Part shown: positions 33,433 through 64,000 of the stretch, piece by piece
Layout of the letters: every line of letters begins with the position of its first letter
How positions within the stretch are numbered: the stretch's first letter is position 1
The notes under the pieces: generated by a model
Told to the model about the DNA's origin: nothing
Databases searched by the model: none
Seen by the model: the letters and a program-made list of their open reading frames with translations, nothing else
NCBI RefSeq assembly: GCF_000003815.2
Contig: NC_049995.1
Location: 2,365,753-2,429,752, forward strand
Direction of reading: 5' to 3'
From: Branchiostoma floridae
Lineage: Eukaryota; Chordata; Leptocardii; Amphioxiformes; Branchiostomatidae
Length of the DNA stretch: 64,000 nt
Made by a program: the position numbers and the translations under genes

Positions 33433-34131
33433 GCAATGTACCCCTCAAACACATGTTTTGTTCCCCACCTACCAGCATAATGGTACAGTCCGGTTGTAAC
33501 CTTTGACCCTTCATGTCCATCTAAGAGTTTCGCGCGTTTCTTCAGATATTTTCGGACTTTACGAAGAAACGTTCGTGTAATAAGTTACGAAATTGAAGGA
33601 GTGGGTCAGTAATACCTCCTATTTCGTACAGGTAATGTTGTAAGTTGTTTTCAGTTCCATGGGGCTACGTTTTTATGACGTTTTGGGTACTGTATGTTTC
33701 GTGGGGAGGGGGATGAAAACTTGTACTAACGTAGGTCCGACGTTAAATACCAAGAGAGACTCCTAACTCAAAAGCGAACCATGCGTTACTCAGCACCAAG
33801 AGACCACGTCTAGCGAAATAATAGACGTTAAATGAGGACAACAACAACAACAATATTCTTATGTACGTTAATGCAGTAGTTTGAATTTCCTTGAATCCAA
33901 CCCCTAATTAAAAGTCATAAAAGCTGCTACAGGTATTTTGGTACATTTCAGCCTTCTGTGCATATAATATTATAATTTTTTTTTCTGAAGTGAAGTCTGG
34001 ACCTTGAGAAAAGTTGGGTGGGTGTAACGTTACTTATTATAGAATGCATGCAAGAAATGATTGGTAATGTGGAAAATATTGTATTCTTTCTTTTAATAGG
34101 AAGGACTGGTGCACGTTCCAAAGTGAGAGCC

Positions 34132-40536: not shown

Positions 40537-43500
40537 ATGCAACCGTCCAGATGTAAGTGCCATTGTCCAACTACTGCTGCCCTGGGACCAAGACTTGTGC
40601 ATCCAAGAACACTGGGTACAAGAACAGCAAGCATCATGGGAAGCCTACACTACATTCCTCATTCGAATGTTCAGTCCACGAATAAGGGACCAACAAATTT
40701 CCTCCCCTCAGTCAGAACTCCGCCAGGTTTTTCTTGGTTGGTGACGATCATGTCGATATGGCTTGTTCTGGTTGCCATAGCAACCCCGTCGAGCGGCGTG
40801 GAATGTAACGTTCCGAGCGAAACCCCCTGGAGGGGATTTGCGGTGAGTTTTTCGCGGGAATGGCGGATTGATGCCGCGTGCAGTACATACTTCGATTGTT
40901 ACGGCGTCAACGCAACACTGGAGAACATTGCACAACTCTGTCCTGTAGAAATGCAAGAAGGCGACTCCCTGTATTTGAATTCTTCATCAAACCCCTTTTT
41001 CCCGGAGGTAAAAGCTGTCAACGTGTCAGAAACTGACTTCGTCAACTGCCCTACTGATTATACACAAGACCAGCTCCTATTTGGCAACACTTCTACAGCA
41101 GGAATGTCGCTGCTCGTAGATTCAAGATTCCTCGCAGTCGGAGTGAACTATTTCGCACAAGTTCCAGACGACAGTTCTCTTTTCGGCCGATGCGATTTGG
41201 GGTTGAGACTTAATGTCACGGTAAAAACGAGAGATTGTGAACCGACGAGTGCAGACCCGGAATGCAGCAGGAACGGTCGTTGCGTGACACGGCCTCAAGA
41301 GGCGACGTACAGCTGTGCGTGTGAGGACGGTTTTCTCGGAGTCTACTGTGGGGAGCAGGATGGTTGCTATGGCAACCCGTGCCTGTACGGTACATGTGAG
41401 GATGTGCAGGAAGGACTGAGCGGAAATGACTACACCTGTGTCTGTGAGGAGGGGTTTACAGGTGGTTGTTTTCAGTTTGTCTCGATGTTTGTGTTCTTCT
41501 GAATTTAAAGGGTGTACTGACAGAGACCCTTTATCATACTCTATGATTATCTTCGTTTACGAAGCTTTTGTTTTTGGTTTGTCTGTTTGTATTCTTGTGT
41601 ATCTATAGTTATTTCAATGCACCATCAGCAGGGTGAGAGAAAGTGAGTGGGAAGATAGTGTCATTGCCTTGTGGGAGTGACAGGAAGTAGAGTTTGGAGT
41701 TGGTAGAACTAGCCATAATCAGACATGACAAACAGTCCAGGTCATGGGGTCAATGGAAGAGGCTACTAATAGATGTTGTTTCATTGGTCTGATTTTTATC
41801 CATATTTTTGCAGTATTATGTTTTCCATATGCTTGTTTCTTGAACTACGGTATCATCTTTTTAGAAGTTGATACAGTAATTCATCAGATCAATAGTTAAC
41901 CTGCAGGCACGTTTACAGTATTGTGAATACTGATGTGACTTTTTATGTCCATTTCTAGGTAAGAACTGTTCAGAGCTGATAGACTTGTGCACAGAGGGCG
42001 TGTGTAACAACGGCACCTGTGTGAACGGTACTACTACAGACAGCCACTACTGCGTCTGCCACCCAGGCTATACTGGTAAGGCATCCTCACAATAGATAAT
42101 TTTTATGTGTTTAAAGTCCTTGTTGAGAAATCTTGTTGGTGATTTGTGTGGACGTTTGTTTTCATTGTGTCTAGACTTCAGAAATGGTTTAGCCTGTGTA
42201 CCATCCTACATAGTGACCGCTGGCTCATTAGCAGGCAAAAATATTGAGCCAGTGGTCACTACAGAGGATGGTACTCAGGCTTAACTTAAGATTGTTGCCT
42301 TTTGCAGTGCAAACAATTTTTATAGGATTCTCAGATTTAGATGACTTTTATGCACCAGTAAGCTTGAAACTTTAAGAACAGTAATTTAAAAGGAATTAAA
42401 GGAATTTCCTGTGGAATATTGGACAAAAGAATTTTTTAAAAATCTGTTGTTTTTATTCCATGACAGGTCCTACTTGCAACATCATCATCGACTTGTGCGA
42501 ATCATCCCCCTGCGAAAACAGTGCTACCTGTACTCCTGTCATACCACTGGACTACAGCTGCGAATGTGTGGCTGGTTTTACAGGCAAGGATTGCGAGGTG
42601 GACATAAACGAGTGCGGGTCCAACCCGTGTAGTAACCGCGCCACGTGCGTTGACCTCGTCGACGGTTACAACTGCGTTTGCACGGAAGGTTACTCGGGAG
42701 AAGAGTGTGACGTCGAAATCAACTTCTGCGAGTCACAACCCTGCAAGAACGAGGGAACATGCAACCGTGTACTGAACGGCTACACGTGTACGTGTGCGTC
42801 GGGTTTCACCGGGCCAACATGCGAAATACCGGACCATCAGTGTGAGAGCGACACGTGCCAAAATGGCGGACAGTGCTTCCCGGTCCCTAACGGATTCGAG
42901 TGTCTTTGTCAGCCGGGCTGGACAGGAGATTTGTGAGTCACAATTACATGTCTGTAAACATAGTTTGTGGACAGGTAGGCCAATTTGCTAAATTCTAAAT
43001 TCTAAAAAATGATAATTATTGTACTTTTAATAGACGACTTTTTATTCACAAAATACTATATCGGAGACAGACTTACACACCTATGTTCCAACATACCCAG
43101 GTTTCTGACCGCACCTAACACTAACTCCTAGGTTTGTGCCTTAACATATAGGCATTGGAAAATATTGTGTTGGAACATAGGGGTGTCGGACAATATAAGT
43201 GTCAGGACATACATAAGCCATAGGGGAGTCCCCATGGAAATTGTGCTCTCACTGTCTCTATTGTTTGTTACTCTGTGACTGGAGGGTAACCTCCAGCGAA
43301 AGAGTGTTAGCGGTTTATGGGTTGAGTGTTCGCACCAATATCTCGATGTTCCATTTGCCGCAATTGTATGTGGTTTGGTATGTCATCTGTACTCTGTTGT
43401 GAAATGATGCACGTTCTTTTTTTTTCGCGGTAGCTGTTTTTATTATGGATGTAATTTCAGTTTCCACCTTTATGCCGTCCGGTATAGTGGTCCAGGTCTT

Positions 43501-46500
43501 TGTTATGATTGCGCCTTAAGCCTTGTTATATTTCTGCATACTTTAATAGACATATTCTATGAAAATTGAACATTCTTCTATCGTCTTTTCCTGTTCCAGT
43601 TGTGATGAACGTCAGAACTACTGTGTGGACATTAACCCTGACGTGTGTCAGAACGGAGGAATATGTCAGGATACGAGCCTGCCGGATGGACCGCCCAGCT
43701 ACAACTGCACCTGTTTGCCTGGGTGGCAGGGTAAGATATGCAAATGTTTATTCAAATGGTGTCATAATTTGCATAATCTATAACTTATGATATCACTAAA
43801 CCTTCATACAAAATATTTCATACATACACTTTTTAGAGTGTTACTAGAAGTTTCGTTATTAGTGTAAATTGTCATGTTGTTATTTGCAATACACTGTATC
43901 CTGTACAGTTGTTCAAAAAGCCATCCATGGACTGTACCACATTACTTTCAGGAAGGAGTATCTTCCTGTAATGCTGTAGTACCTTAAAGCGGCATCTTAA
44001 ATAATCTTAAATTGCCTTGTTTTATGGGGGGGGGGGGGCTGCATCAACTTTCTCACTATCCCACTATCGAAAATATCTTGAGTTATGGCACAAACACAAC
44101 CAACAACAACATCTTTCTTGCATCAGCAGAGAACCTCTGTCCTGAAGGAAACAAATAAAGTTTTACTTAAATAAATTTTTACTTTGCTCCTTACAGGTAG
44201 AGACTGTGAGGTGGAGACAGATGAGTGTGAATCGGACCCCTGCTTAAATGGAGGAACTTGCTTCGAGGCTTTCAACTACTTCAACTGTACATGTGTGCTT
44301 GGTATGTAGCACTCATATTCACTACTTTTTGGTAGCAAAATGATAATGTTTATTGTAGATCATACAATGATAGACTGGTCCTGAATGGCCATCACAATTC
44401 TCAGTCCAACCAATGTTGGCATGGTTGTCAATTAGCAGTTTGACCATTGGAAAACTGGTGGCATGTTTGCCAAATATTTGTGCATTCATGTTTTTATTTT
44501 GCATTTCTATGTTACTTTTCATTTAAATGGACAGTGACTATTTGATTGGTCTATTAGCTAAAGATGTGTTTATTAAGGCAAAATTTGAAAAAATGAAGTT
44601 TGAGTTGATCAAAATTTGTTTTCCAGTAAACAATATTTATAATGTATATAGTGCTAACAGCAACAGTGCTATGTTGTAGTAAGACTTAATTTGGTTGTGT
44701 TATAGAAAACTCCTATATCCTATCAACTTTTTTATTTGTTTGTTGTCTCCTAGGTTACAATGGAACCCAGTGTGAGAACAACATCGATGCCTGCGAGCTC
44801 GGCGGTACACCGGAGGAGAAATGTCTGAACGGCGCGACGTGTCTGGACTCAGACATCGGGCTGGAGTACACCTGTCTGTGTGTCCCAGGGTTCATAGGTC
44901 AGGACAATTTTAACAACCCTGTACGGTCCACAGTTGATACAATGTTGTAACCTTAGGCCATGGAAAGCTGTCTCCAGCAAATTAAAATCTTTTTTTCGTC
45001 CCGCTTATTGGTTATACTTCTTAAGGTAATATTTGACTTGATTGGTAAACAGCTTGATGAGTTGAGTTTATTTAGATACCCTTTAGCTCAAATTGAGCTA
45101 ATCTTCCAGGGCTCGTACAAATAAGAGGCATACAATATATACAAATACAATACAAATGTATATACAAATCCTATGCAAGACTTAATCATTAATTGGAGAA
45201 AGCAAGAAACTTATAATGAAAATTCCAAATAAAATGGCTGACATCGTAAGATCAAGATGAAGTAATTCGAGTATTGAAATATGAGACAATTTTCCTTTGC
45301 TCCGTATGAGCTCTTGGATATGTCAATCCACTGTACTTATTATTGCTAGTTGAATAGAGAACCAAGTAACAATGAATGATACTAAATGACAAATTTAAAA
45401 CATTTCATTATTTGTTATTTGTACATACTTTATCAGGTTCCAACTGTAGCGAGGAGGTTTTGGAATGTGAGTCGGAACCGTGCCAGAATAGCGCCACCTG
45501 CCTGGATCTGATTGGTCGATACGAGTGTAACTGTACTGACGGGTTCTACGGTGTCAACTGTGAGAGCGACAAGGACTGGTGCGAAGATGAGGTCAGTTAA
45601 GATAATGTTAGAAATGTTGCAAATTCAAATGTTCGTTGTATTTACATGTGTCCTGACTCTAAACATCCATCATGATTGTTTTCTGTCATCATCATTTGAA
45701 CAACGTAGATAGAATTAAAATTGTGAGAGTTGAAAATATCAGCTTTTAGTAGTTTTACAACAATTGAAACATTAACATTAACTGTCATAATTTTTCCGGG
45801 TAGAGTAAGTTTGAATGTGTAATATACTTTAAAGAGGACAGGACAATGTCTCTGACAATAAAGGGACAGGCCAAGTTTCGTCCAAAGCAGTCTCAGGCGA
45901 CCAGAAACACCATTTCCTGTCGGAGCACAGCAGCATTAGTGAACCTCCCCTCCTTCCCTGATTATTCCCATCCTCCACCTACCCGCTCTAATTCCTCATG
46001 GTAGCATCTGTCTTTTAGGCAGTCGGGTGTGTTATGGAGTTGCCACTGACCCATATTTGTGTTTGTGCTATTTGTGAGTAGACAGAAAATGGAATTCTTT
46101 CATAACTTGTGGAGAAGAGAATTCACGTCTCTATCATTCTACACTGCAGCCCTGCTACAACAGTGGTACCTGTATCACAGTGCTGGGCTGGTACCGTTGC
46201 GAGTGCGCCCCTGGCTGGTCGGGCGAGAACTGCACCGAGAACATCGACGAGTGTGTGAACAACACCTGCCAGAACGGAGCCACCTGCCAAGACCAGATAG
46301 CCTCCTACAGGTGAGTAACAGGTGCTACAGGAGTGAACAGGTGCTCAAGGTGGGCTCCACTGCTACCACCTGTTAGCTAAGATATACATGTACGAATGTC
46401 TGCACAGAGCCGTGTCTTAGGTGAGACTGAATGTGGGTCCCTCTCCTTTTATTGGAACAACAGATGTCTTCCTCATTACACAATACTGTCAGGACTTACT

Positions 46501-49500
46501 GGCAACGTATGTCTAAGTTGTAAAGATTGTTTATAGAATCTTTAGTTCAAAATAGTCTAGAGTAACAGCGTTGTTTGGATGAAACATGCTTATTCTGCAC
46601 CCCATCAAACAATTTATGTTAGTAGAAAATTGACATTTTAAGTTCTAGAGTTGATCAAATCTCCCTTTTTGTTGTTTTGTGATTTCCAGCTGTGAATGTG
46701 CTGTGGGTTTCAACGGTACGTACTGCGAGAACAACATCGACGACTGTGTCTCCGTTCCGTGTCAAAATGGCGGCACTTGCCACGATCAAGTCAACGACTT
46801 CAGCTGCACTTGCGCTCCTGGTTTCACGGGGAAGGATTGCTCCACTGACATCGATGATTGCGAATCTTCGCCATGTGAAAACGGCGCCACCTGTACGGAC
46901 TTGGTCAACGACTACAACTGCACTTGTGCTCCAGGGTACGAGGGGAAGAACTGTACCGTTGACATCGACGATTGTTTGTCCTCGCCATGTGAACATGGCG
47001 GCACCTGCATTGATGCTGTGAACGACTTTAGTTGCACGTGTTCGGCCGGGTATACAGGAAAAAACTGCTCGCTAAACATCGATGAGTGCGAAGCGTTGCC
47101 TTGTGAAAATGGTGCGACTTGTTCTGATGCTGTCAATGATTACATCTGCACATGTGCTCCCGGTTATGCCGGAAAGAACTGTTCGGTAAACATAGACAAT
47201 TGCGCGTCCATGCCGTGTGAAAATGGAGGCACATGTTTTGACGAAGTCAACGATTTCAGGTGTACCTGTATGCCTGGGTATACTGGCAAAAACTGTTCCG
47301 TCGACATAAACGAATGCGAATCATCACCATGTGAGAACGGTGCTACCTGTACAGACCTCATCAACGACTATGCATGTAACTGCACAGCTGGTTTTGATGG
47401 AAAGAACTGCTCTAATAATATCGATGACTGTGAGTCCTCCCCTTGTGAGAATGACGGAACATGCGTGGATCTTGTGGATGACTTTGAATGCCGCTGCACT
47501 CCCGGGTTTGAGGGAAACAACTGCTCAGTGAACGTTGACGAGTGTTCTTCCAACCCTTGTGCAAACGGAGGCCTGTGTGTGGATGAGATCAATGGATATC
47601 AGTGCTTCTGTGTACCAGGTAAGCGAAGGAGTGGTGGTGTAAAAATGGTCAGGGACTTTATACTCCTATGATGTTTATCAACCTCTAGCCCTAACCAGGG
47701 ATAGCTCCAGGACCTGTCTTTCTGTCCCAGGATGGAAATTCGCTTCTTGGGACAGTAATTTTTTTTTACCTCATCCATGACATAAAAATTTTTGACAGAT
47801 AAGCCTAATTGACAGATTTAAGAACAAAAACAAACATTGGGGTCCTAAATACTCAGTGGGACAAAAAAAATTTAAGCTGGAAAGAGCCCTGTCCTAAATC
47901 CACAAACATTACAACATAGGAGTGTCACCCAAGTGGTCAAAGTTCTAAAGTGCAACGTAAAATAAAGTGTGCAAAGTGCAAAATATTACTATTAAAAGTC
48001 ATAAGTATGGTTGATATGGAGATCTAGGAGATCTAAGCTATGATCAAACATCTAAGCTGACTAAAGCTAGCAGTCAGGCCCCAGAGCCTTAGGAAACAAT
48101 GGTAAGTAACTTAGCCTCTTCATGGGTGATTAGTAAAGACAACATGGGCACACCATGCTAATCCCTTGGTGTGGTAGGGACCACCCTGACCCCATTAAAA
48201 ACTCATCAGGCTCAATCAAAGACTCATTAGGCCAGTATTGGCTTCCTCCTAGGGGTAAGGATACACTGGGAGAGTGGGTTGAAAAATAAATAGAAATCTT
48301 CAACAGACAGACTATCCATTAGGGAACTGTTACAGAAAATTTATGTAGAAAGTTCTACAATTCATAAATAGTTCATTTTGGGCAGAACTTATTCTGCAAA
48401 GGGATCACTTCTAGAATCAGGGCTGTGTCTAAGTTTGAATTTTTTCTGCCCCTCTCATAGTTTAGCACCACTCTTGATTTTCAAATAATTGCAAAATCTG
48501 TCATTTTAAGGTTATTAAAGATTCATTTTCATCCATTTCATGTCATAAAGTTAAGATTTTAGGACAGACGGTAACATTTTTACTTTTTTCATTGTTGTAC
48601 AATGTGACAATGTTTTATCATTGAATGTACTTTAGTTGATTTGCACTGTTTTATGTTTTGTTTGTGTATGCAGGGTACTTTGAAAAGCGCCCTAGTGGCC
48701 ATATGTTGCATTTAGATACTAAGTACTAAATGAAATGAAATCTTTCCTGTTTAGGATTTATTGGTGAGAACTGCAGTATCGACATTGATGAGTGTCTGAC
48801 GGCGGCATGTGAAAACGGCGCCACCTGTACAGACCTGATTGATGACTACAACTGCACCTGTGCTCCAGGTAACTTCTTCAATTTTCTATTGGGCAAAATT
48901 ATATCAAAGTGCATTCTTTCCATGGCATTTTTGGCCTAACGAAAATAGATTGTGACATTCAGATGTACTATTTGCAACTTGAGATCAATTGTTTTGGTGT
49001 ATATGAATGCTTGTCTTTTTTTTTCTTCTTCTTCGATACCCTTGAACCACCCCTACTAGGGTATCACTGAGGGATACTTTTATATGTTTTTCTATATGTA
49101 TGTAGTTGTATGAATACAGTACAGCGAGGGGGAAGATGGTATAATTACTAGACCAGAAAAATAGTGGTCAAATATCAATGATTGACAGGCAGGAAGTGGT
49201 AGAACATATGAGAGTCCCATTCAGTTGAGAGTGACAGGAAGTGACCAACGGACACGACTGTAAACATTGATCAAAATCTTATTTGCATAATAGATGAACT
49301 AGAATCAAACAAGTCATATGAGAAATTCAGAGACCTTCAAACTCTTGTTCACTTTCAAAAGTTTGAATGTTTGTATTTTCCTTCAAGGCTGGAGTGGAGA
49401 GAACTGCACAGAGAATATCGACGAATGCCTGTCCAGTCCGTGTGGTGTCGGCACCTGTGTTGACGACATCAACGGGTACAACTGTTCGTGTCCACAAGAC

Positions 49501-52500
49501 ATCTACACTTACGACAACCACTGTAACATCATCGAGCCATGCAGTTCCAACCCTTGCCAGGCAAACACAACAACAACATGCAACAACACCATTGTAAACA
49601 ACATCTATACGTACATCTGTGTCTGCATCGCAGGGTCTGAAGGGCAAAACTGTGAACAGAACATCGAAGAATGTGTTGTCAACAATGTTCTGTGTGAAAA
49701 TGGAGGGACTTGTCAGGATCTTGTTAACAACTACACATGCGAATGTGCTGCTGGGTTCACTGGACAGCACTGTGAGGTGAACGTAGACGAATGTGAGGCT
49801 AACTTCTGTCAGAACGGCAGCACCTGTGTTGATGGTATCAATGGTTACACTTGCAGCTGTGCTCCAGGGTTCAAAGGTCAGTACTGTAACGAGACCATTG
49901 ACAGGTGTGAGGATTCGCCTTGCTTGAATGGTGCGACGTGCACTGATACACCAAATAGTGTCACAGGTTTACCGTTCACATGTCAGTGCGCGACCGGCTT
50001 CAACGGCACATTCTGCGAAGTAAACATTGACGAATGCGTGTCCTTTCCTTGCCAAAATGGCGGAATCTGCCAAGACGGCATCAACGAATATCGGTGCGTA
50101 TGCCAGCCTGGTTTCAACGGAACCAACTGTGAAATCGACATTGACGAGTGCGCAACCGACTTTTGCGAGAACGGTGCCACCTGTCGCGACGAAGTTAACA
50201 ACTATACCTGTATCTGCGCAGCGGGATTTGAAGGAGGAAACTGTGAAATCAACACGGACGAATGTGCATCAAACCCCTGTAACCCACAGACTGGGATATG
50301 TGTAGACCAGACCAATGGCTACACCTGTTTCTGTTCAAACGGTTGGACTGGAAGTGACTGTAGCGAAAATATTGACGACTGCGAAAGTCTCCCGTGCGTG
50401 AACGGTGCAACCTGTATCGATGGCCTTGGAAGCTACAATTGCTCGTGCTTGCCGGGATATGAGGGGACGGACTGTGAGGTTGAAATTGACGAGTGCGAAT
50501 CTGATCCGTGTCAAAATGGTGCGGCGTGTAACAATGGCATTGACGAGTACACTTGCAGTTGTGTGCCAGGCTTTGCTGGTTAGTGGTGTTTCCTTTTCAA
50601 AATCTCTGAGTCTAAGACCGTAATTTAGTAGCCTGTGTTTTCACAATCTGTCACTGGCTGAGGTTAATGATCCCTAGGGGGTAGTAACTGTTGGGCTGGC
50701 CGCTAGAAGCATGATTTAGTCAGGCTAGCAATTTAGCAACTGTTCTTTTTTGTTGTACCTTAGTCCTAACTCTGAATTACATGTAGCTCACATATCTCTG
50801 ATGTTTGCAAGATTGTTCGCAAATATTGCTGATGTCTGATGATGGTTTCATGTGGAAGATGTCACTGCAAAATTAGTAAGTCAGAGATCTCAGCAGCAGT
50901 ATAATCAAACAATGGATAGTGATGGTGAGTGAGTTCAAACGAGCACGTGAACCCACTCCTTAATTCGCTCATGTACATATAGCTAGGGACCAACTGGGGC
51001 ACTCGTCCCAAATTTGGACGATTCCAGATGTTACAGATGTTAAGGTTCCCAGACAGAATAGTAGAGAAGTAACTGTATAGAGTGTATAATAAAAGTCAGA
51101 GCGAACTACATGTACTACCTAGATTGTACCCAGGCTGCCATATGCATGAATGTAGTGAAACAGTTCTACAAGACTCTAGAACAATGCAAGTCAAAACTGT
51201 GACAAGTTGTCCTATTTTGTTTCCAGGGACCAACTGTGAGATCAACATCGACGATTGCGATCCTCAACCCTGTCAAAATGGCGGCACTTGTCTGGATGGC
51301 GTAAACGACTACTTCTGCCTCTGCACGTTCCCATATGTCGGTCGGAACTGCTCCCAGCTTCCGTGTGAACAGTCGCCGTGTCAGAACGGGGGAAACTGCA
51401 CGCACACGGACTTTGCAGTGAACGATGGGTATGGTTATACCTGTAGCTGTCCCGCTGGTTTCATAGGTGAGATCATTTGGTTCTTCCTATTTTAGATCTC
51501 TAACATCAACTGTCATAATTCCACCAGGTACCACAATACCGCCACATCAAACATTCTTATAAGAGGCCTTCTCAAGATTGTCTTGAACACCTAAATACTG
51601 GAAGTGTATATACCTCAGGATTACTCAGATGCTGCATTGGTTACATCTCTTTTAAATCATGTATTTTTTGTCATGTGGCAGTATTATGATATCCGGTTGA
51701 ATTATGAGAGTCGGTGTTACACTTTGCTGTACTTTTATTGGGCGTATGGCCGAGACCTTATATTCAGTGTGTGAAATCATATATTAACAAAGTTTTGTTC
51801 TGGAGTTACTTTGATAATACAGTAGTATGAATTATAAATCGGTCTTTTATTTCCAGGTCGTAACTGTGAGCTGAACTTTAACGACTGTTGGACCCGGCCA
51901 TGTGTGAACGGATTTTGTCAGGACGGCATCAACAGCTTCATCTGCTTGTGTGATCCTGGTTAGTACATCTACTGTATAATGGTTTACTTTAAAATTTGTA
52001 GCAGTGTTGTTTTGCAGTAGAAGGGGAAAGGGAAGTTTTCTCAGTGTTTGAAATTTGCGATTGAAACAATTCTATAGTTATGTAATACATTTGGAAATGC
52101 ATATTTGCGATGTCATAAATTCACCACCAAAACTGTGACAGTAAAATAAAAGCACTATAAGAAACTCTTTCTATTCCTACTGGACAATCCAAAAAAACGT
52201 TTTCTGCTCCTTTGCATATCAATTAATAAGTTACGGTATAAAACCTGTTTTTATCAGATCTGTTCTGTGCCACTGACACTGAAAGATAGTGGATGCAATC
52301 TGAAACGACCGACCATTTTCAATGCACCTTTCTCACGTGTCAGCCATGATAAATAAAAAATGAGGTCAATGAGGCAGACAAACTGACCGTTTTCAATACA
52401 CCTTTCTCACGTTTCAGCCATGATAGATAAAAAACGAGGTCATTGAGGCCAACTGCTTTTTGGTGTATCTTATTACCCAAATGTCTACTTTCCTTGATGT

Positions 52501-55500
52501 AAGAAACAAACTGTTACTTTCCAGGATGGGCCGGTACCTTGTGTGATCAGCCCATAGATGACTGTATAGACAACATGTGTAGGAACGGCTCTACTTGCGT
52601 GGACAGGCACATGGGATACATCTGTGTCTGCATGTACACCCTAAAATAATCAACAATGTTATCAAACCAAATGTTGTGTTCCAGGGTGGGCCGGAGCCTT
52701 GTGTGATCAGCCCATAGATGACTGTATAGACAACATGTGTAGGAACGGCTCTACTTGTGTGGACAGGCACATGGGCTACATCTGCATCTGTCCGCCTGGG
52801 CTGGAGGGGACGTTCTGCGAGGTCAACATCGACGAATGTCTGACAGCAAACTGTCAGAACAACGCTACATGCGTGGACTTGTTCAACGACTACAGGTTGG
52901 TGACACCGTCTTGGAAGTCTGTACAATTTTCAATTGGCAAAATGTAGAATGATTATCGTAATGTTTTGAACACTTCCTGCGTAGACTTATGAAGACAGAT
53001 GAAGGTGAACTAGCGTTACTAAACCTCTCTCCTCAGGTGTGACTGCTTGCCTGGCTGGACTGGGAAAGACTGTGAATCGGACATCCCAGAATGCAGCTCC
53101 AACCCCTGCCTCAACAACGGTACCTGTTTCGACAACGTGGACGGATTCGTGTGCAACTGTCCGCCATTTTACACCGGCCAGAACTGCTCCCTGTCCTTTG
53201 ACCCTTGTGATCCGACCTATGACCCCTGTGAGAATGGTGCCACCTGTTTGACCAATCAGGATGGGACATACAGTTGCAGTTGCATTCCAGGTAATCAGTG
53301 TTTTTCTAGCACGACGAAGAAAAGAATTTTTCAGTATTCTAATTTTATAACATTTACATTCACGTATAACAAAATGATTAATGTCCTCTATAAAAGTGTG
53401 CAAAAGCTTAATACTACTTGTAGGTGAAATGCTTGTTTTAGGAGGTTCAAAGCCTATCTGGCTCATAGAAGATGATACCTACACTGCTTTCTCTCTTCAG
53501 AACTGTGCACTTATGAGAAAGAGTATGTACTACTGCCACCAGACTAGCCCCCTGCTTTAGTGCTTGCAAAACTGTGTGGCCCAAGGGCTATAGAGACAGA
53601 GATGGGCATCACCCTATGCACCAAAAGGTGGAAAGTCTCTTTTTCTGTAAAATTTTTTGGATTACTTACTAGAACATCTTTGTGTACCCTAGGTTTCACG
53701 GGGATGAACTGTGAAACCAACATGGACGACTGTGTCCCCGACCCGTGTCAGAATGGAGCTCGCTGTGAGGACCAGGTGAACGATTACGTCTGCCACTGCC
53801 TCCCAGGGTTCACCGGGAAGAACTGTCAAACCGACATCGACGACTGTCTGCCTGGGATCTGTCAGAATGGAGCCACTTGTCTTGATCTTGTGGATGGGTA
53901 GGTTCTTAATTTTTTTGGCAACACCACAAGGGCGGAGGCCCTTTTTTTGTTATTGATGACTCTGAAATTCAGTCTTATTATCAATCTATTATGTTTTTTT
54001 TGCTCGCAACTTTATATACTTCATACCAGTTCAGTATGTTTTGTTCACAGTTAACGTAACAGTTTATTGTTTTTCATACTCATTACTGTATTTTATGAAG
54101 TGCTGTTACATCTTGATTTAATTAAGAAGTTTCCACTCCATGATTTTTCAATTATTCTATGAACATTAAGTCTGCATTGTGGCAAGAATTACACTTTGAG
54201 TTACAATATCATCAAAACCATCCTATTTCATCCCATCCCATTCTGAATCTGATTCTTTTACAGGTACAATTGTAGCTGTGCACCTGGCTATACAGGACAG
54301 AACTGCAGTGAAGATATTGACGAGTGTGCCTCGTCACCCTGTGAGAACGGTGCCACATGCAGGGATCTGATTGGTCAATACGAGTGTGACTGCTTTCCTG
54401 GATTTGAAGGTGATTGGTCAAATCAAATTCCAATCCACAGTCTTAAATTGGATTTCAGAATTAAGGTTGGAACTGTTACACTATATGCAGGAACGCTATT
54501 TAAATGTGAACGTGAAATGATTACTTTAATTGACAGACCAATGCAAACAAGTACAACTTTTAAGACTAATAAGTTAAACTATTTGATGCTTTCAAAAAGG
54601 TTCAGGGCCTTTTCCTCATAATTTGCTCAAACTGTACTTTTTGATTCCAGATTTTTTTGTGAAAACAAGACCCAGTAGTGATTTTCTCATAGCACATTTC
54701 AAAGATTTGTCTCTAAAATAACTTCAGGCCAGAACTGTGCCTCAGAGGTGGATGAGTGCAGCAGCGCCCCCTGTGTCAATGGTGCGACCTGCAGAGACCT
54801 GCTGAATGGCTATGACTGCACCTGTGCGGAGGGGTTCACTGGCACTGACTGTGAGGTCAACATAGACGACTGTGTTCCTGATCCTTGTGTCAATGGAGTG
54901 TAAGTTTTTCATCTATTCTACGAAAATTTATGTAAAATACTGTATGTGATTTTTCCCGTATTAGACTTGGGAGGCTTCAAACTATTTCCTGTATTAATAA
55001 AATTATGTAGGTTTGGGGTTTGTTTGAGTGAGTTTATGTAGATCCAAAATTAGCCTCATAAGAGGCTATTCTTCCTGTGGTCTACACATTTGTGAAATAA
55101 ATGAAAATAAAAATCTATTACCTCCCCGTGAATTTAGTAGTGTTGACTCTTCTGTTGACCCCATGACCTGGAATGTCTGTCATGTCTGATAAACAACTAA
55201 ATCTATATTACCGGAATTTTACTTTCTTTCACTCCCACTCAATTTCCGTCTATACTGACTTTGTCTTGAAATGATTGAGAACACACAAGAGCACACAAGA
55301 AACATCCAAACACACGAAAACAAATTTTCTTAGTACAGAGGCAAATATTGACTATTTTGTTCTTTTTTAGCTGTCAGGATTCGGTGAATTCGTACAACTG
55401 TGTGTGCGCCCCTGGCTGGACTGGAGAGAACTGCACCGTTGACATTGATGAATGTTCCAACAACCCTTGTCAGAATGGTGGCACCTGTACTGACAGGGTC

Positions 55501-58500
55501 AACGGATTCACCTGTGCATGTTCACCCGGATATACAGGTGAGATAGAATTCATAATTACATAGAAAGTACATGGAATTGTAATGTAATGGCATCCCTTAC
55601 AAATAAGTCTGACGTGTGAGAATTGCTGCTGGTGTCATTGTCGTACACTCAAACAATACAGGAGCCATGCTACGTTTGATGCTTGTATTCATGAATCACT
55701 AACAGTATCCAAGGCTTAACTGACGTCGCCTGGGTACAGTAGTGCTACTCTACTCTTCATTTAGGTTTTCCTATCTATTTCCTATGTATGTATACATCCC
55801 TATCTAATTGCCATTTGTTTTACCATAAAATTTTGTCAGGACCCAACTGCACATTTGACATCAATGTCTGTGAGGCTCCTGGCTTCTCCCAGTGCCAAAA
55901 TGGTGGCTCCTGTGTCGATGGACCAGGGAATAACTTCACATGCAGGTAACATACTGTACTAAATCAAAACAAGACAAAGTTAACACTGAATTCTTGTAGA
56001 CTAAAAGTATTTGTGTGGTGTTGAATGATCAAGTGGTCACAGGTTTCATTCCTGGCATTTGTAGCTACACGATGTGTCCTTTGGAATGTCCTCACTCCAC
56101 CCAAGTGTCATCATGGGTGGCTAACTTTTTGGTTTGGGATGTGAATTAGGAAGAAAGGATGCCTCCCTCTTCCATACATATATAATATATATACCATGCC
56201 CTAGACACAGTGAATGAAAGTCCCCTTTGCAGCCTCAAAAAGGTTACAGGACTATACTTGACCAACTTCACTGAAGCAGGGCTCGAAATACCACCTGCAC
56301 ATGCAGGTTAGTGCAGGTAAGATTGGAGCTGTGCAGGTATTTCTGATGTCTACCTGCACCTAACCTGCACTGGTCCATCTACTGGGTATATAGTATATCG
56401 TATGATGTAGGTGCATGTGGATTGTTATTAGCTGCATTGACTGTTACCACCTATTAAGTACAGTGAAACCTGTCTATAGCGGCCACTCAAGGGACTGGTC
56501 AAAATTGGCCACTATAGAGAGGTGGCCACTATAGAGAATATGCTAATTAATTTACCACAAGCAATAAGTTACACATGGTTTTAGTACCCACTGATCTTTA
56601 TTCACATAATACAGTACTGTACATGTACTGCAATGATTTTTACACTATGTGTATTAAGAAAACAATAGCTATGAAAAGTTTTAAATGTTCTACAGCTGAT
56701 ATTGTCTGAAGAGACCGGTATCGTCATATTTCTTTGATCTTTCGTCTTGTATCCTTTGATACTTCGCTGTTCGTGGGTTCCCGCTCGCGTTCACACGTCA
56801 GATTCGCCCATTATGCTAATGTGGTACTCACAAGAAAAGTCTCGTCATTTTAGGTTTATCTCTTAATAAATGTAAGAATAAAATCCACCATAGTCTGAAG
56901 TTCATATCATTTTGTCTTTGTAACAATTTATTTAGAAAGTTTTTGTGATGTAAATTTACCTAAGCGATAGCGTATTAGAACGTAACTTTAACACAATTTA
57001 CCTCCGTAATAGTGGTGTCGTCTATTGACCTTATATGACCTAGTTTGTCAGCGGGTATGGGTAGACCAGTTTACGTAGTTTTGTTTTGAAAATAAATCAA
57101 AGAGGTTTTAAATCCGGCCTAGGGTGACGATGCGGCCGCTGTATATGGCCGAACGCGTGCCGAAACATAGATCAGCGGTCCGCGTGGCCGTAATCGACAG
57201 TGTTTTTGTACCTACGGGACCGGAAATCTTGTGGCCGTGGTCGCGTTGGACAGGTGGCTGCTAAGCCTATTTCTTAATCATTACGAATCCAAGGGACCGA
57301 CAAAAAGTGGCCACTATGGGCAGGTGGCCGGCATGCAAAGGTGGCCGCTAATACAGGTTTGACTCATAATATAAGATAATGGTTCCTGAACAATTTCAGC
57401 ATGATCGATACTTCCTAAATTCAGAGTGGTGCAGGTAAAATTTGTCAGGTGCAGGTAATTTTTAATGTTGCCTGCACCAGTGCAGGTATGCAGAAAAAAG
57501 TATTTCGAGCCCTGACTTGTTCCTCATCATGACGATGACAAATGACATGACCATATTTTGTCCCCTCCCCTTTACAGCTGCATGCCAGGCTATGCTGGTC
57601 CCTACTGTGAGGTAGATGTGAATGAGTGTAACTCTGACCCATGTCAGAACGGTGCCACCTGTCAAGATCTCATCAACGGCTTTAACTGCAACTGCACAAC
57701 AGGTAGGGACAATCAGAAACTGCAGTTTGTTTAGATTTATTACTTGCCACTGAAGAAGTTGTACGCAACAAATCCGGTTTGGCAGGCTGAATAAAAAATT
57801 AAAGATCCAGAAACTTAAGCTATGTAGCTCCAGGTTTCTTACTGAGGGATGACTGTGGTGCAATAGATGTCAGTTAGCTGAGGAATGAGTCAACTCTACT
57901 ATGTTGACTATGTACTGCAGTGTGCTTAGATGTATTGTTTCCCCTGAGTTTGATGATAAAAAAATGAAGCCCCTGTCACATGACCAAGGCCTTCCGACCT
58001 TCTCCAGACCATTGTTAGGAATTAGTCCTTAGCAAGTCTGTGGTTGGGAGTTTAGTAATTTAAAAAAATCAAAGTTATGAAAGTCATATTGTTAGATGCA
58101 ATCAGAGGAGTGAACTGGAGTTTCAATAGGATGGAGTCCAGGCTACTCCCAACCCAGTGCCAACCTTGGCAGAGGAGTGGTTGGGAGCAAAGTTTCCAGT
58201 CCGATTTTGAACTTATTTCAGTCGTAACATTTTAAAACTAACCTCATTGTATACCGAAACCATACTGGACTTCCTGTGGTGTATGATGGCCATGTTTATA
58301 AAAGTTACGTCACTATGTCTAACAGCTTATTTTCTTTTTCTAGGTTGGACTGGAGAAACCTGTGCAGATGACACTGACGAGTGCAGCTCCGACCCCTGTC
58401 AGAACAATGGAGTGTGCCAACAGCTGGCCCCAGGATCAGGCTACCGCTGCTTCTGTCCTCCGGGCATCCAGGGCGACAACTGCGAGGTCAACTTTGACGA

Positions 58501-60802
58501 CTGCTTCAGCGATCCTTGTCAAAACGGCGCCACCTGCGTAGACGCCATCAACGGATACGCCTGCAGCTGTGCCCCTGGCTACAATGGGACTCACTGTGAG
58601 ATCGACATTGATGAATGCAGCAGCTCCCCCTGTCAGAATGGAGCAAACTGCACCCAGCCGTACCCTGGTGTCTACGAGTGCCTGTGCTTGGACGGCTTTG
58701 CTGGAATAAACTGCGAACACAATGACACCTGTATCAATAATTTGTGCCAAAATGGAGCAACATGCGTGGCCTACCCAACCAACTACACATGCGTGTGTGC
58801 AGCCGGTTTCACAGGGACGTTCTGTGACGTGGTCACCACGACACCAGGTACAAGCACTGCCGTGTGGATCAGTAGTAGCACAAGTAGTGTAGATAGAACT
58901 AGCACGCTATTCAGCACCCAAATAACACCGGTTGATGTGATGAGTGTGACTTCGATAACTGCATTTCTAACCCCGACCAGCGTTCACCTTCCAGCAAGTA
59001 CAGATGATTTACTAACATCACCACTTGTCTCTGTAGCGACAATAACACCAGAGTCAACCATGGAGCAGTCACTCATAACAATGTCATCCTCTGTTACCAC
59101 CTTACCATCAATAACAACTAACGCATACCCGACATCAGCACTGTCACTTAGCATCTCATCCACTGCAACATCTAACCCATCAGCTTCTGTAGAACTGTCT
59201 GAAGTAACCATGGCAACCCAAACTGTCTCCATAGCAACAAGCATACAGCCTACCCTGCAACCCACCTCCACCAACCTGCAGCTGGCTAGCACTCCACCAC
59301 TGCTGCTAACAACATCTCTCAATGCATCAGACATTCAAACTTCAGTNNNNNNNNNNNNNNNNNNNNNNNNNNNNNNNNNNNNNNNNNNNNNNNNNNNNNN
59401 NNNNNNNNNNNNNNNNNNNNNNNNNNNNNNNNNNNNNNNNNNNNNNTTTTAGAAAGTGGCATTGTGTCAGAAAGTCAGCTACAGCCAACTCCTATGTTAT
59501 CTTCAATGGCATCAACATTAGTAGAAACATCAGAAAGTACAATACAGTTCAGTACTGGTACCTCATTTATCTATCCAACAAGTACACTAAGTCTGGAAAT
59601 GACCTCAGAATCTTCAACAGTCTCCTACAGTGAAGATGTATCTGTGCCTGTTGGTACGTCAATTTCTCCTTCCTTGCAAACGAGTCAGTCATCACTTTCA
59701 CTTGGATCCGTTCCGGCTTCTCAGACAATACTTGAAACATACAGCTCTACAGTTGGACCTTCAGTCCCATCTCTTGTTATATCTTCAACAGAGGTTACAA
59801 CTACACAAATCACAGCTGAAAGTTCAGCAGGACAACAGAGTACACTATCTATTCCGGTATCAACAACTGTAATGCCTAGTGTCTTGCCACCAACAAGCAC
59901 TGTGCAGCTGAGTTCAACATCTCTTCCAGCATCAACTGCAGCAACATCTAGTGTCTTGCTGCCAACAAGAAGTGTACCGGTTGCTGTTACCAACACATTG
60001 TCAACAACCATGTCCTTTGCCACAACTTCAATGATGAGTGAAACAACAGAGATATTTCCGGAACCTTCAATATTTGTGACTGAAACAGTTTTTGAAACCG
60101 TTGCCCCATCCACAGTCCTTGAAACGTCTGTTGTATTAACCAGTACACCTGTTGGTTCCAGTACCTTGGTGTCTCCAGTGATGGCTATGAGCTCGACATC
60201 ATCTTCTTTGCCAACTACTACTGTTACAACTACTGTGGCTCAAATACCAGTATCTACCAGTCAACTCGATACTACCATTTCAGAAAGTTTGGCCCCATCA
60301 ACAGAAACACTTTCTGTAACAATGGTAGTTCCAGAGTCAGCCACTACACAACTACCATCTTTCACAGGAACATTCTCTCCTGTCCTGCATACATCCACAA
60401 GTCAAATGCCACAATTTTCATTCACCCAATCTGTATCATTGCCTCAGTCTTCAACAACAAGACTGACTGACTTGACCACTACACAACAGGCCCCTTTGAC
60501 AAGGACACTCACGGCAATATTGCCTGCTTCTGCCAGTCAAGTGTCAACCAGTCAGCCCACCATTTTGCCTCAGCCTACATCAATGGCTGCTACGCAAACA
60601 GCAATAACCACAGAACTGATCACAGTTTTAGCTTCAGAATCAGCGCAAACCTCTGTTATACCATCATCAATGACTATGGTTCCTGAACCAGCTTCAAAGT
60701 GTTATTGTGACCAGCATGCCATCAAGTGGTTCTCCCACAGCTTTTCCGACTTTGGAAATATCCAGCTCAACAGAAATACTGGAAACTACAACTGAAGTCT
60801 TG
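40537..60802 (+). CDS. Giant DNER-like protein: about 51 EGF domains plus mucin-like region, 3' end in gap
   Basis: Coding exons: 40503(ATG 40537)-41461, 41959-42075, 42467-42932, 43600-43730, 44197-44301, 44754-44897, 45437-45591, 46150-46310, 46690-47618, 48755-48868, 49388-50578, 51227-51466, 51857-51958, 52685-52895, 53037-53290, 53693-53897, 54264-54409, 54728-54899, 55371-55537, 55840-55945, 57578-57702 and 58344-gap-60802. All junctions keep frame. About 2,390 aa precede the first gap. The signal peptide is [16 protein letters not shown], so ATG 40750 is an alternative start. The N-terminal domain ends [12 protein letters not shown], then [17 protein letters not shown], closely matching the human DNER LRLTLVVKVSTC/EATFSCTCEEQYVGTFC segment. 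EGF repeats and a Ser/Thr-rich region follow. No DSL, LNR or LamG domain is seen. No transmembrane segment is visible; it may lie beyond the gap. Adhesion or Notch-pathway roles are inferred. Confidence 0.82.
42191..42284. repeat. Hairpin element in an intron of the DNER-like gene
   Basis: AGCCTGTGTACCATCCTACA...TAGTGACCGCTGGCTCA pairs with TGAGCCAGTGGTCACTA...GAGGATGGTACTCAGGCT. The stem is about 37 bp with a few mismatches and a loop of about 18 bases. It is a mini-MITE or a microRNA-like hairpin. Confidence 0.7.
43075..43192. repeat. Inverted-repeat element in an intron of the DNER-like gene
   Basis: CACACCTATGTTCCAACATA near 43076 mirrors TGTTGGAACATAGGGGTGT near 43171. This is a small foldback unit with no coding content. 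Confidence 0.5.
46690..47618 (+). repeat. Coding tandem array: eight EGF units in one exon
   Basis: EGF units repeat every 114 bases. Their core pattern is [18 protein letters not shown] followed by [17 protein letters not shown], with two alternating flavours (GGTC...NDF and GATC...NDY). The flavours suggest duplication as pairs. This is the most homogeneous part of the gene and is contained in a single phase 2 to phase 1 exon. Confidence 0.9.
47619..48754 (+). other. Intron of the DNER-like gene
   Basis: Apart from the hAT-like MITE at 47695, it holds AT-rich sequence and a second CAGGGCTGTGTC word near 48419 without a clear partner. No exon is recognised. Confidence 0.5.
47695..47895. mobile_element. 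Possible hAT-type MITE
   Basis: The left end CAGGGATAGCTCCAGGACCT is roughly mirrored by the right end AGCTGGAAAGAGCCCTG, and GTCCCA/TGGGAC pairs lie inside. CAGGG...CCCTG ends are typical of hAT elements. The terminal repeats are imperfect. Confidence 0.4.
52315..52495 (+). repeat. Diverged copy of the 3199/6185 repeat family, internally duplicated
   Basis: ACCGTTTTCAATACACCTTT and GTGTATCTTATTACCCAAATG correspond to CCGTTTCCAATATC and GTATCTTATTACCTGGATG at 6185-6306. A block beginning ACCATTTTCAATGCACC is repeated about 75 bases on. Confidence 0.5.
52525..52631 (+). pseudogene. Truncated duplicate of an EGF exon
   Basis: This stretch starts after a good acceptor (CTTTCCAG) and repeats the first 105 or so bases of the true exon at 52685 (GCCTTGTGTGATCAGCCCAT and following) with about eight differences. 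It then breaks into unrelated sequence and reaches TAA in frame (ATG TAC ACC CTA AAA TAA) with no consensus donor. Including it would truncate the protein, so it is probably a dead exon or a haplotype mis-assembly. Confidence 0.75.
56277..57514. mobile_element. hAT-like non-autonomous element, interrupted
   Basis: The ends CAGGGCTCGAAATA and TATTTCGAGCCCTG are perfect 14-bp inverted repeats with the CAGGG signature of hAT transposons. Subterminal TGCAGGT/ACCTGCA words are repeated many times. No clear 8-bp target duplication is visible. It is inserted in the intron before the 57578 exon and contains the element at 56461-57366. Confidence 0.75.
56461..57366. mobile_element. Pogo/mariner-like non-autonomous element nested in the hAT-like element
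   Basis: The left end CAGTGAAACCTGTCTATAGC (GGCCAC follows) and right end GTGGCCGCTAATACAGGTTT (GACTCA follows) are inverted copies with small differences. It is flanked by TA on both sides. GTGGCCACTATAG-type subterminal repeats are present. CAGTGAAACCT-type ends are typical of pogo/Tigger relatives. No transposase frame is seen. Confidence 0.75.
58844..60802 (+). other. Ser/Thr-rich mucin-like segment of the DNER-like protein
   Basis: After the last EGF domain (ending GFTGTFC) the frame turns into Ser/Thr/Pro-rich sequence ([11 protein letters not shown]..., [20 protein letters not shown]...) for over 600 residues on both sides of the 100-N gap. It would be densely O-glycosylated and form an extended stalk. 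A one-base frame change near 60696 separates the last 35 or so residues ([19 protein letters not shown]) from the rest. Confidence 0.8.
59347..59446. other. Assembly gap of 100 N
   Basis: Exactly 100 N, so the size is probably a placeholder. Ser/Thr-rich coding sequence is open on both sides but in different window frames, so the true length is unknown. Confidence 0.95.
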
Positions 60803-61733: not shown

Positions 61734-62860
61734 AATCAAGTTTCAATACCATGACTTCAATATCATGACTATCATAACTGGTCTCACTGATGTTCACAAC
61801 TAAACTCACACCGATGTTTACATCAACAAAGTCACAAGTGCGACAAAGCTTCCCGACATCATTACCCTCAATGGATGCCATGGCGTTAGGAAACAACAAC
61901 ATTGAAACTTATGAAGTCAGAATTTCTCTCCGAGAGTGTCCAAAATAATCTGCCATCATTGGAGTCGATGAACAGATGGCAACTGAAAAGAAGTTTAAAG
62001 CATGTCACCTGCCAGAGTTCCGTTGCCAACCGCGGCAAAGATGTCCTTGTCAATTTTTATGTGAGTTCCCTGTAACAACCACGGCATTCCTTACATCAAG
62101 TAAACAGAGTATTACATTGCCACCTTCATACTCTGACTTGTATGAAATAGAGCCGGTTTTCAAGAATAATGACCTTTGAGAAGGAGTATTCAAGTGCCAC
62201 AAAAGAAGCAAGAACAGTTCCTGGGCTGAGCAATGTGATTACAGGTAATTTTTTGTTATTGATATTTCCGATATGCTTTGGTCAATAATGTTTTACAGTT
62301 ATCATATGTAACTTTGTAGTAGTATTTATTTCATCATTTTTTTGTCTGAAATTTTGTTTTCGTTGCAGGATTTTATTGGTTTTTCAAAGATATTTTTTGC
62401 TTTTATTTCTTGAATTTATTTTTGTGTATTGCCATTTCATTAGAATGTTTTTATGACTTGCATATTTTATTCATTTTAGACCAGACATGCAAATATATCT
62501 TTTGTTTCAGAGTCAAGACTTCAACTGTTATTGCTACATCCAACTTTGGAGTCAGAATATCACCCATAAGTGGTCCAAACTTTTTAAAACAGGAAGACGG
62601 CAAAAACAGTAACGCATGGAACTGAATACCAATCAAAGATGGCAATGCAAAGATCAAGCTCACATGATCGTGTCCTGTCATCGACAAACGTTCTCTCCAG
62701 CCAAGACAGTGCAATATTCAAGACAAAGGCAAAACATTGTGGTGATAATGAATCATTAGGAAAATTTGCAGGAGAAAGGATTGCAAATCTGTTTTCCACA
62801 GATTTTCTAGTGATATCGCAGGCTCACTCACTCACTCGCAAACCTCCACAATAACTACCA
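61734..62860 (+). other. Possible remains of the DNER-like 3' coding region, frames broken
   Basis: Ser/Thr-biased pieces appear in several frames: SSFNTMTSIS then TGA (61766) and TAA (61775); then TTKLTPMFTSTKSQV to TAA at 61946; then VTTTAFLTSSKQSITLPPSY to 62179; then MQRSSSHDRVLSSTNVLSSQ to about 62852. Either sequence errors next to the gap break one frame, or this is decayed or non-coding DNA. No transmembrane segment with a following basic stop-transfer is evident. Confidence 0.35.
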
Positions 62861-64000
62861 TACAACTGGCTTATTTCTGATGGAACCTTCAGAAATTGCA
62901 CAGGCTAGTCTGAATTTAGAAGATGGCATGCAAGTCTGCTTTATTATCAGGGACTCCAGACCCAGCTATGACAAGAAAGAGTTCTGAAAACCTTTCATGA
63001 CTTGTTCCAATGTGTTTGGGAACGGACCTCTCCTTGGTGCTGAATGCACAGATATTGCAGTTTACTAGTTATAAAGAAAGTTTTTTGTCTCAGGACACCA
63101 GGCATTCTTTGCTTAGCTTTCCTCGCAGCTCTGAAGATATTGCTTCTGCACTATCAGTGGTGGTTGGCTCTAGGCTGGTAAAAACCACCAGGATATATTG
63201 GGATATTTTGAAATATTTTGAAAGTTTCTGCTTCCATTGAATTTTGCACCATTTTCATTGAAATCATGAATTTTTTTCACATGTGTAAAACAAACAAGAT
63301 TTTGGTTTTGTAAAAAAAAAATGTTTTAGAATGTTTTTTTACATGTATTTTGTTGGTAATTTCACCAATATTTTTCATGAGTTTCGTTTCAAGTTACTCC
63401 ACTCACCCCAAATAAAGGAATACTAGTAAGAGCTTTAGGAGGTATGTTATATCCACATATAGGCATGGCTCAAGCATGGTTTGTAGTAGAGAAGTGTGTA
63501 TCCTAACCTAATGGCTTCATTCTCCTGTCATCCTCACTTTTCATTACATGTTGATGCTGTCTCATTCCCTTTTACCAATGCTATTTATGGGACAGTCAAC
63601 AATGTGTACAACATACTGTTTTCAGAAAATACTTTCAAATGCAATAGAAACCTATCTTTATATAAATTTTGAATGCATTTTTCTCTGCCGTTGAGAATTT
63701 AAGTATTGTTGACTGTTCCTGATTGATACCTGTCAACCTAGCATCATGTCAGATGTTCTTAACCCTCTACTAAATGAATGTGATTCTATGCTGTTTGTTG
63801 TGACCATATTATGCATGTTTGTACCCTGTGTTGGTCTGTGATGCATGTAAGGTTTCATGTACTGTACTATATTAGATTAGTATTCTGAAATGTATGTTTT
63901 GATTTATGATAGTTGATATTTACAGATTTGTAGTACAGTGTGCACCATTTTTCTTAATGTAAAAACTTAAGCCTTTTGTTTTTTAAACGACATACATATA
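62861..64000. other. AT-rich sequence, no gene recognised
   Basis: Likely 3' UTR or spacer. An AATAAA near 63412 is the only feature of note. Confidence 0.45.

What the first reader, a model, noticed from the sequence alone, without database searches (positions are those of the whole stretch)
40537..60802. DNER-type N-terminus on an array of about 51 EGF domains with a mucin-like stalk
The domain before EGF1 and the first EGFs align with vertebrate DNER, a Notch-related neuronal protein with about 10 EGFs: [41 protein letters not shown]. Here I count about 51 EGFs followed by more than 600 Ser/Thr-rich residues. This would be an unusual lineage-specific enlargement of a conserved developmental gene, or a separate family that kept the DNER head.
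Basis: partly seen in the sequence, partly recalled or inferred. Interest (0 to 1): 0.75.

Follow-up and report, generated by a model that had tools for sequence, protein, structure and literature searches.

The report
Lancelet EYS gene with 51 EGFs
The long EGF-rich gene is best read as a lancelet-type eyes shut (EYS) gene, the matrix protein whose loss causes a form of human blindness, and its resemblance to the neuronal receptor DNER comes from a shared front-end domain for which no Pfam match was found.

Summary
A splice-aware model of 40537-58828 gives 22 exons and exactly 51 six-cysteine EGFs, followed by about 620 visible Ser/Thr-rich residues; model score 2942 against at most 24 in four controls.

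The DNER reading is only partly right. The head resembles DNER but matches eyes shut homolog (EYS) much better. A human EYS N-terminus, recalled but agreeing with published residues at 8 of 8 positions, finds the window exon at E 5e-37 in the whole genome, the next place being 7e-6. Downstream, across a 3,420-N gap, the same strand carries five laminin-G domains and eight EGFs in the EYS order. A separate gene on contig C12 has the DNER plan: head, eight EGFs, membrane span.

So this is most likely EYS with an enlarged EGF array: 51 before the stalk and about 59 in all, against 27 in human and 39 in zebrafish. The unexpected part is that EYS and DNER share a roughly 150-residue head, without Pfam match, found here clearly at only these two loci.

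Not shown: transcription across the gaps, and expression.

The parts
40537..41461 (+). First coding exon: leader with a hydrophobic stretch ([15 protein letters not shown], residues 68-82), head domain (about residues 88-233), EGF1 and most of EGF2
   Evidence: Open frame from 40474, first ATG 40537; hydropathy peak; donor 41462
40798..41235 (+). Head domain shared by EYS and DNER; no Pfam match
41236..41349 (+). EGF1, atypical, counterpart of DNER EGF3 and the first EGF of human EYS
41462..41958 (+). Intron 1, phase 1 within EGF2
41959..42075 (+). Exon 2, end of EGF2 and most of EGF3; the following intron is at the position and phase of human EYS intron 5 (c.863-)
42467..42932 (+). Exon 3, end of EGF3, EGFs 4-6 and most of EGF7
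43600..46310 (+). Exons 4-8 (43600-43730, 44197-44301, 44754-44897, 45437-45591, 46150-46310), end of EGF7 to most of EGF13
46690..47618 (+). Exon 9, end of EGF13, EGFs 14-20 and most of EGF21; holds the most alike EGF pairs of the array
48755..48868 (+). Exon 10, end of EGF21 and most of EGF22
49388..50578 (+). Exon 11, end of EGF22 to most of EGF32
51227..57702 (+). Exons 12-21 (51227-51466, 51857-51958, 52685-52895, 53037-53290, 53693-53897, 54264-54409, 54728-54899, 55371-55537, 55840-55945, 57578-57702), end of EGF32 to most of EGF47
58344..59346 (+). Exon 22: end of EGF47, EGFs 48-51, start of Ser/Thr-rich stalk
59347..59446 (.). Assembly gap, 100 N, inside the stalk exon
59447..60802 (+). 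Stalk continued, 416 residues 42% Ser+Thr, then a one-base frame change near 60697 and 34 more residues
60803..61733 (.). Assembly gap, 931 N; end of the stalk exon unseen
61734..64000 (+). Probably intron of the same gene (inference); no Pfam match above cut-off in the frames tested. The C-terminal part (8 EGFs, 5 laminin-G) lies beyond the window at C17:2433406-2449687 (window numbering about 67654-83935)

Best explanation
The gene is the genome's eyes shut (EYS, spacemaker) gene. It encodes a secreted matrix protein: leader, EYS/DNER head, 51 EGFs, a Ser/Thr-rich stalk, then EGF-LG1-EGF-LG2-EGF2-LG3-EGF2-LG4-EGF2-LG5. Shown here from sequence: the head, the 51 EGFs and the stalk start in one frame-consistent exon series; the EGF/laminin-G block follows on the same strand. 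Inferred: that both halves form one transcript; that the EGF array is a long calcium-stiffened, O-glucosylated rod; that the stalk is a hydrated O-glycosylated spacer; and that the laminin-G domains dock on O-mannosyl glycans (matriglycan) at the cell surface, so that the protein holds an extracellular space open around photoreceptor or other sensory cells, as EYS does in flies and fish. The DNER likeness is shared descent of the head and first EGFs.
For: Whole-genome search with recalled human EYS residues 22-260: window exon E 5.3e-37, 42% over query 16-234; next place 7e-6 and EGF only. Recalled EYS letters agree with published residues at 8 of 8 positions: Q27, L60, V112, T120, T135, N137, E176, G288 (check in 74). 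Head-only alignment with EYS 209 against a shuffled maximum of 57. Human EYS Q27, V112, T120 and E176 are listed under exon 4, and the window head is likewise in one exon; human intron 5 (c.863-) falls at the same place and phase as window intron 2. Five laminin-G domains downstream, each over a Pfam cut-off, with 7 EGFs from LG1 on (read by eye), as in the published human 5 LG + 7 EGF piece. O-glucose motif in 25 of 51 EGFs; O-glucosylation of EGFs is needed for fly Eys. No second close copy of head or LG4.
Against: The laminin-G block is outside the window, beyond gaps of 931 and 3,420 N, and no RNA joins it to the EGF array. I had no EYS laminin-G sequence to compare; the closest solved structure for LG4 is agrin. 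Four of the five LG domains passed only on fragments that I joined with X, apart from one LG1 half. The human EYS and DNER letters come from memory, recalled after I had read the window; the DNER letters are unchecked. One paper writes the human intron as c.862-, which would shift the intron match by one base. The coiled-coil that a paper reports in the middle of human EYS was not looked for here.
Confidence: 0.93

Rival explanations
1. Two neighbouring genes: a DNER-headed, mucin-stalked EGF protein ending near 62-63 kb, and a separate agrin/neurexin-like laminin-G gene downstream.
For: Three N gaps (59347-59446, 60803-61733, 64001-67420); LG4 is closest to agrin among solved structures; an AATAAA lies near 63411.
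Against: Head matches EYS over nearly its full length; the EGF/LG order and count downstream equal those published for EYS; no membrane anchor or tail of DNER type found in the window; no Pfam match above cut-off in three frames of 61735-62061 and one frame each of 62062-62850 and 62500-62850 (the other frames there were not scanned).
Confidence: 0.05
2. A true DNER orthologue enlarged in this lineage.
For: DNER EGF3 and window EGF1 are far closer than any other pair; DNER query finds this exon first, E 7e-21; the C12 head scores higher with the window (117) than with human DNER (99).
Against: The window scores far higher with EYS than with DNER. The C12 gene has the DNER plan: head, 8 EGFs, membrane span alignable to human DNER, and of the two human heads it prefers DNER (99 against 74). 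The window shows no DNER-like membrane span or tail.
Confidence: 0.02

Closest known systems
EYS / eyes shut homolog / spacemaker (human Q5T1H1, 3165 aa)
   Same: Head domain, first EGFs, intron after EGF3, long EGF array, then five laminin-G domains with interspersed EGFs
   Different: 51 EGFs before the stalk and about 59 in all, against 27 in human and 39 in zebrafish; long Ser/Thr-rich stalk; compact gene (about 43 kb with gaps as drawn, against 450 kb in zebrafish)
DNER (Delta and Notch-like EGF-related receptor, 10 EGFs, listed as cell-membrane)
   Same: Head domain and the atypical first EGF
   Different: No two EGFs before the head, no membrane span found, five times as many EGFs, a stalk and a laminin-G block
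Agrin, perlecan, pikachurin (EGF/laminin-G matrix proteins)
   Same: Laminin-G and EGF modules; agrin is the best solved-structure match of LG4
   Different: No such head or 51-EGF array (their layouts recalled)
Notch and its ligands
   Same: Long EGF arrays with O-fucose and O-glucose motifs
   Different: No DSL, LNR or MNNL match was reported in the five stretches scanned with Pfam

Membership tests
EYS (eyes shut homolog) | N-terminal head of EYS type in the first coding part | tested here: met
   E 5.3e-37 over head and EGF1-2; head-only alignment 209 against null maximum 57; human letters recalled, 8 of 8 published positions agree
EYS (eyes shut homolog) | Signal peptide, secreted | tested here: inconclusive
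   Hydrophobic stretch at residues 68-82 just before the head; no signal predictor at hand; start codon not proved
EYS (eyes shut homolog) | Long array of EGFs in the N-terminal half | tested here: met
   51
EYS (eyes shut homolog) | Five laminin-G domains alternating with EGFs at the C-terminal end | tested here: met
   Five over a Pfam cut-off; 8 EGFs read by eye, of which two reach the Pfam cut-off; order EGF-LG-EGF-LG-2EGF-LG-2EGF-LG-2EGF-LG; joined to the window part only by position and strand
EYS (eyes shut homolog) | Conserved intron position after EGF3, phase 1 | tested here: met
   Human intron 5 at c.863- (another paper writes c.862-); window intron at 42076
EYS (eyes shut homolog) | Coiled-coil in the middle region | not tested
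   Reported for human; the end of the stalk is in a gap
EYS (eyes shut homolog) | Expression in photoreceptors or other sensory cells | not testable with these tools
   No expression data
DNER | Two EGFs before the head | tested here: not met
   First coding exon goes from leader to head; no complete-EGF pattern hit before 41236 in the window. That DNER has two there is recalled
DNER | About 10 EGFs in all | tested here: not met
   51 before the stalk; DNER 10
DNER | Single membrane span and short cytoplasmic tail after the last EGF | tested here: not met
   A Ser/Thr stalk follows EGF51; recalled DNER span and tail give nothing better than E 0.13 in the window but align in C12 at E 0.004, in a database of just these two stretches. 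Gaps leave a small doubt
DNER | Head domain of DNER type | tested here: met
   Shared with EYS

The most novel reading that the evidence does not exclude
EYS, a matrix protein of photoreceptors, and DNER, a neuronal membrane receptor, are sister gene families that arose from one ancestral gene before the chordate lineages split. Both keep an undescribed head domain of about 150 residues fused to an atypical EGF. The head probably carries a common binding function that may be at work in both sensory-cell lumen formation and neuron-glia contact.
Probability: 0.7. Interest if true: 0.6.

Novelty: new member of a known kind. Interest (0 to 1): 0.45.

Why it matters
EYS is mutated in a common recessive blindness (RP25), is missing in mouse and in Xenopus laevis and in hagfish, and a paper calls the functions of its domains unknown. 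An EYS gene in a compact chordate genome gives an outgroup for how the EGF array grew. The head link to DNER offers a testable idea of what the EYS N-terminus binds. Published frameshifts at residues 27, 60, 135 and 137 fall before or inside that head.

Tried and rejected
Enlarged DNER orthologue: rejected because EYS fits better and C12 has the DNER plan. Membrane-anchored mucin ending in the window: three frames of 61735-62061 and one frame each of 62062-62850 and 62500-62850, stops read as X, gave no Pfam match above cut-off. Recent or pairwise EGF expansion: the offset-2 signal in EGFs 14-20 is not significant (permutation p 0.09) and synonymous sites are near saturation. Retroposed head: considered because the C12 region matching window exon 1 is split by introns, but human EYS residues 27-176 are also listed in one exon, so it is the EYS state. 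More head-bearing loci: the DNER query also gave C4:24729909 (q67-169, E 1.5e-4) and C4:23191614 (q78-169, E 4.7e-4), which reach into the end of the head; the first, read, precedes its EGFs with a different sequence and ends in a membrane span, so I take it as chance; the second was not read. Structure of the head: single-sequence AlphaFold gave mean pLDDT 34, useless. Relatives in viral contigs: 20 pattern matches, none confirmed. Independent print of a DNER peptide: none found. Papers naming two of 'eyes shut', DNER, Branchiostoma: 5 listed; 3 seen by passage, 2 in the listing only; none concerned these genes' relation as far as seen. DNER with amphioxus, invertebrate, sea urchin, or its full name with mollusc: listings only, none by title or abstract about such a gene. 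Opened without use: PMC7099090, PMC5541311, PMC9581949.

Full report
Observation. The window is animal DNA. A scan of all six frames for complete EGF patterns finds 33 on the + strand, at least two of them running into an intron, and 0 on the - strand. I wrote a cyclic EGF-profile Viterbi, trained on 17 EGF units of this array, that reads DNA with GT-AG introns in three phases. It gives a path from 41236 to 58828 with 21 introns. Open frame and GT-AG ends are built into the method; the controls are the scores: 2941.9 here, 23.9 on the reverse strand, 8.9 on another stretch of the window, -7.4 and 4.9 on two shuffles. With the first coding exon extended to its first ATG at 40537, the model holds exactly 51 six-cysteine EGFs. 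EGFs 48-51 and the stalk start share one exon. The stalk shows 173 residues (43% Ser+Thr) before a 100-N gap, 416 residues (42%) after it, and 34 more after a one-base frame change near 60697, before a 931-N gap. The frame change may be an assembly error; no reads were at hand. Tandem EGFs 14-20 have mean pS 0.84 and pN 0.21, pN<pS in 21 of 21 pairs.

Where it lies. The held genome G000 has 513,431,437 bases in 431 contigs, and the window is C17:2365753-2429752. No relatives are held with it.

Is the head DNER? Partly. DNER EGF3 (recalled) scores 116 with window EGF1; the next best of the 51 is 59 and the median 32. Recalled DNER head plus EGF3-4 finds the window exon first in the whole genome, E 7.0e-21, then C12:1281786 at 3.2e-11, then C8:7444672 at 3.7e-8, which is EGF (163 matches from the best 150 of 735 candidates). 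The head alone fits DNER only weakly (score 49, shuffle p about 7e-4).

A second locus. Of nine matches to the window head plus EGF1, one is itself, one is C12:1281204 (E 5e-6), and seven are weak (E 0.06 to 0.61) and lie mostly in EGF1. The C12 head, without EGFs, finds only its own three exons and the window exon (4 matches, E 3.4e-4 for the window). C12 encodes head, 8 EGFs (read by eye from exon fragments) and a membrane span alignable to human DNER, E 0.004 in a database of just the two stretches, with a short tail. This is the DNER plan after its first two EGFs; those two were not seen upstream, where there is a 584-N gap.

EYS. Human EYS residues 22-260 (recalled) find the window exon at E 5.3e-37, 42% identity, query 16-234. 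The next of 82 matches is 7.0e-6 and covers EGFs only (the best 150 of 647 candidates scored). Because the letters were recalled I checked them against residues printed in papers: Q27 and G288 (PMC3045506, passages and one section), Q27, L60, T135 and N137 (PMC5155541, passages), V112, T120 and E176 (PMC3281914, passages); N137 again in PMC13194756 (passage). All 8 of 8 agree. Head-only alignment scores: window-EYS 209, window-C12 117, C12-DNER 99, C12-EYS 74, window-DNER 49, EYS-DNER 43. So the window clearly pairs with EYS. C12 prefers DNER to EYS among the human pair, but scores highest with the window (117; with EGF1-2, 322 against 321 for DNER), so its place rests also on the DNER plan and the membrane span. 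The window-C12 link (p 6e-12) rests on this genome alone and shows that the two heads are related. The direct EYS-DNER head score is weak (43, p 0.004). In one search the C12 exon ends were approximate; searches use one corrected junction, and there identities to the window are 36% or 34% (C12), 38% or 39% (EYS) and 32% or 26% (DNER).

The rest of the gene. I fetched 30 kb beyond the window. After a 3,420-N gap at 64001-67420 the same strand encodes, in order, EGF, LG1, EGF, LG2, two EGFs, LG3, two EGFs, LG4, two EGFs, LG5, ending near window position 83935 (read by eye; no splice model). LG4 is a single exon, Pfam E 6e-23. LG1, LG2, LG3 and LG5, read from fragments joined with X, each pass a Pfam cut-off, E 1e-6 to 5e-13. 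Scored singly, of the ten stretches only LG4 and one half of LG1 passed; a longer reading of that half fell just below (20.4 against 22.9 bits). The first two EGFs of the block pass their cut-off. From LG1 on there are 7 EGFs; the published human construct of residues 1862-3165 has 5 LG and 7 EGF (PMC7210881, passages). LG4 has no close second copy in this genome, the next match being 1.7e-7.

Introns. Human Q27, V112, T120 and E176 are listed under exon 4, and intron 5 is written c.863-, after the first base of the G288 codon. The window head likewise lies in one exon, and its second intron follows the first base of the matching Gly codon. PMC3045506 writes one deletion as starting at c.862- instead, which would shift this by one base. 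The C12 region matching window exon 1 is split by at least three introns (read by eye, one donor unclear).

Function. EYS is secreted. In flies it opens the inter-rhabdomeral space and needs O-glucose on its EGFs; fish mutants lose ciliary-pocket integrity and photoreceptors (PMC5155541). The human laminin-G part binds matriglycan (PMC7210881). Here 25 of 51 EGFs carry an O-glucose motif, 34 an O-fucose motif, 22 an O-GlcNAc-like motif, 33 the hydroxylation motif and 28 a rough calcium pattern (motifs recalled, my patterns). Human EYS is listed with 11 O-fucose sites in 27 EGFs and DNER with 6 in 10 (PMC11990869, passages). I infer a rod-and-spacer matrix protein docked through laminin-G domains. 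Nothing here shows where it is expressed.

What is new. The gene is a member of a known family with a larger array: 51 EGFs before the stalk and about 59 in all, against 27 in human and 39 in zebrafish. Three heads were scanned with Pfam, window, C12 and human EYS, and none has a convincing match; the weak window hits, E 0.16, are unrelated. No solved structure matches the window head up to E 10; a four-sequence profile gives only an antibody chain at E 0.45. A search for papers naming two of 'eyes shut', DNER and Branchiostoma listed 5, none on their relation as far as I saw: three by passage, two in the listing only. That covers open-licence papers only, so the EYS-DNER link may be in print elsewhere.

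Noticed in passing
C12:1280177-1285416 (L010, L019): A DNER-like gene with two partial EGF copies just upstream of their intact counterparts (around 1283600 and 1284538), each running into a stop in frame.
   Followed up: partly
window 33994-35409 +: Single-exon BRF2-like gene (TFIIB repeat and BRF2 C-terminal cyclin repeat).
   Followed up: partly
window 30753-31726 +: Sterol desaturase-like gene; fatty acid hydroxylase domain at 31337-31720.
   Followed up: partly
window 18190-18522 and 24427-24954 -: Fibrinogen C-terminal domain exon at 18190-18522 (E 1e-35) and a secreted coiled-coil-like reading frame at 24427-24954 (by eye).
   Followed up: partly
window 6325-8409 +: CUB domain exon at 7888-8406; a neighbouring frame at 6325-6669 looks similar but gave no match.
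   Followed up: partly
window 57171-57362; window numbering 69538-69785 and 81240-81535: Very similar non-EGF reading frames ([12 protein letters not shown]...) recur within this gene's span, probably a dispersed repeat.
   Followed up: no
C17:2429753-2433172: A 3,420-N gap begins exactly at the window edge, so the window cuts the gene there.
   Followed up: yes
L034 (C4:24729909): A different membrane protein with EGFs and another extracellular domain before them, weakly hit by the DNER query.
   Followed up: partly
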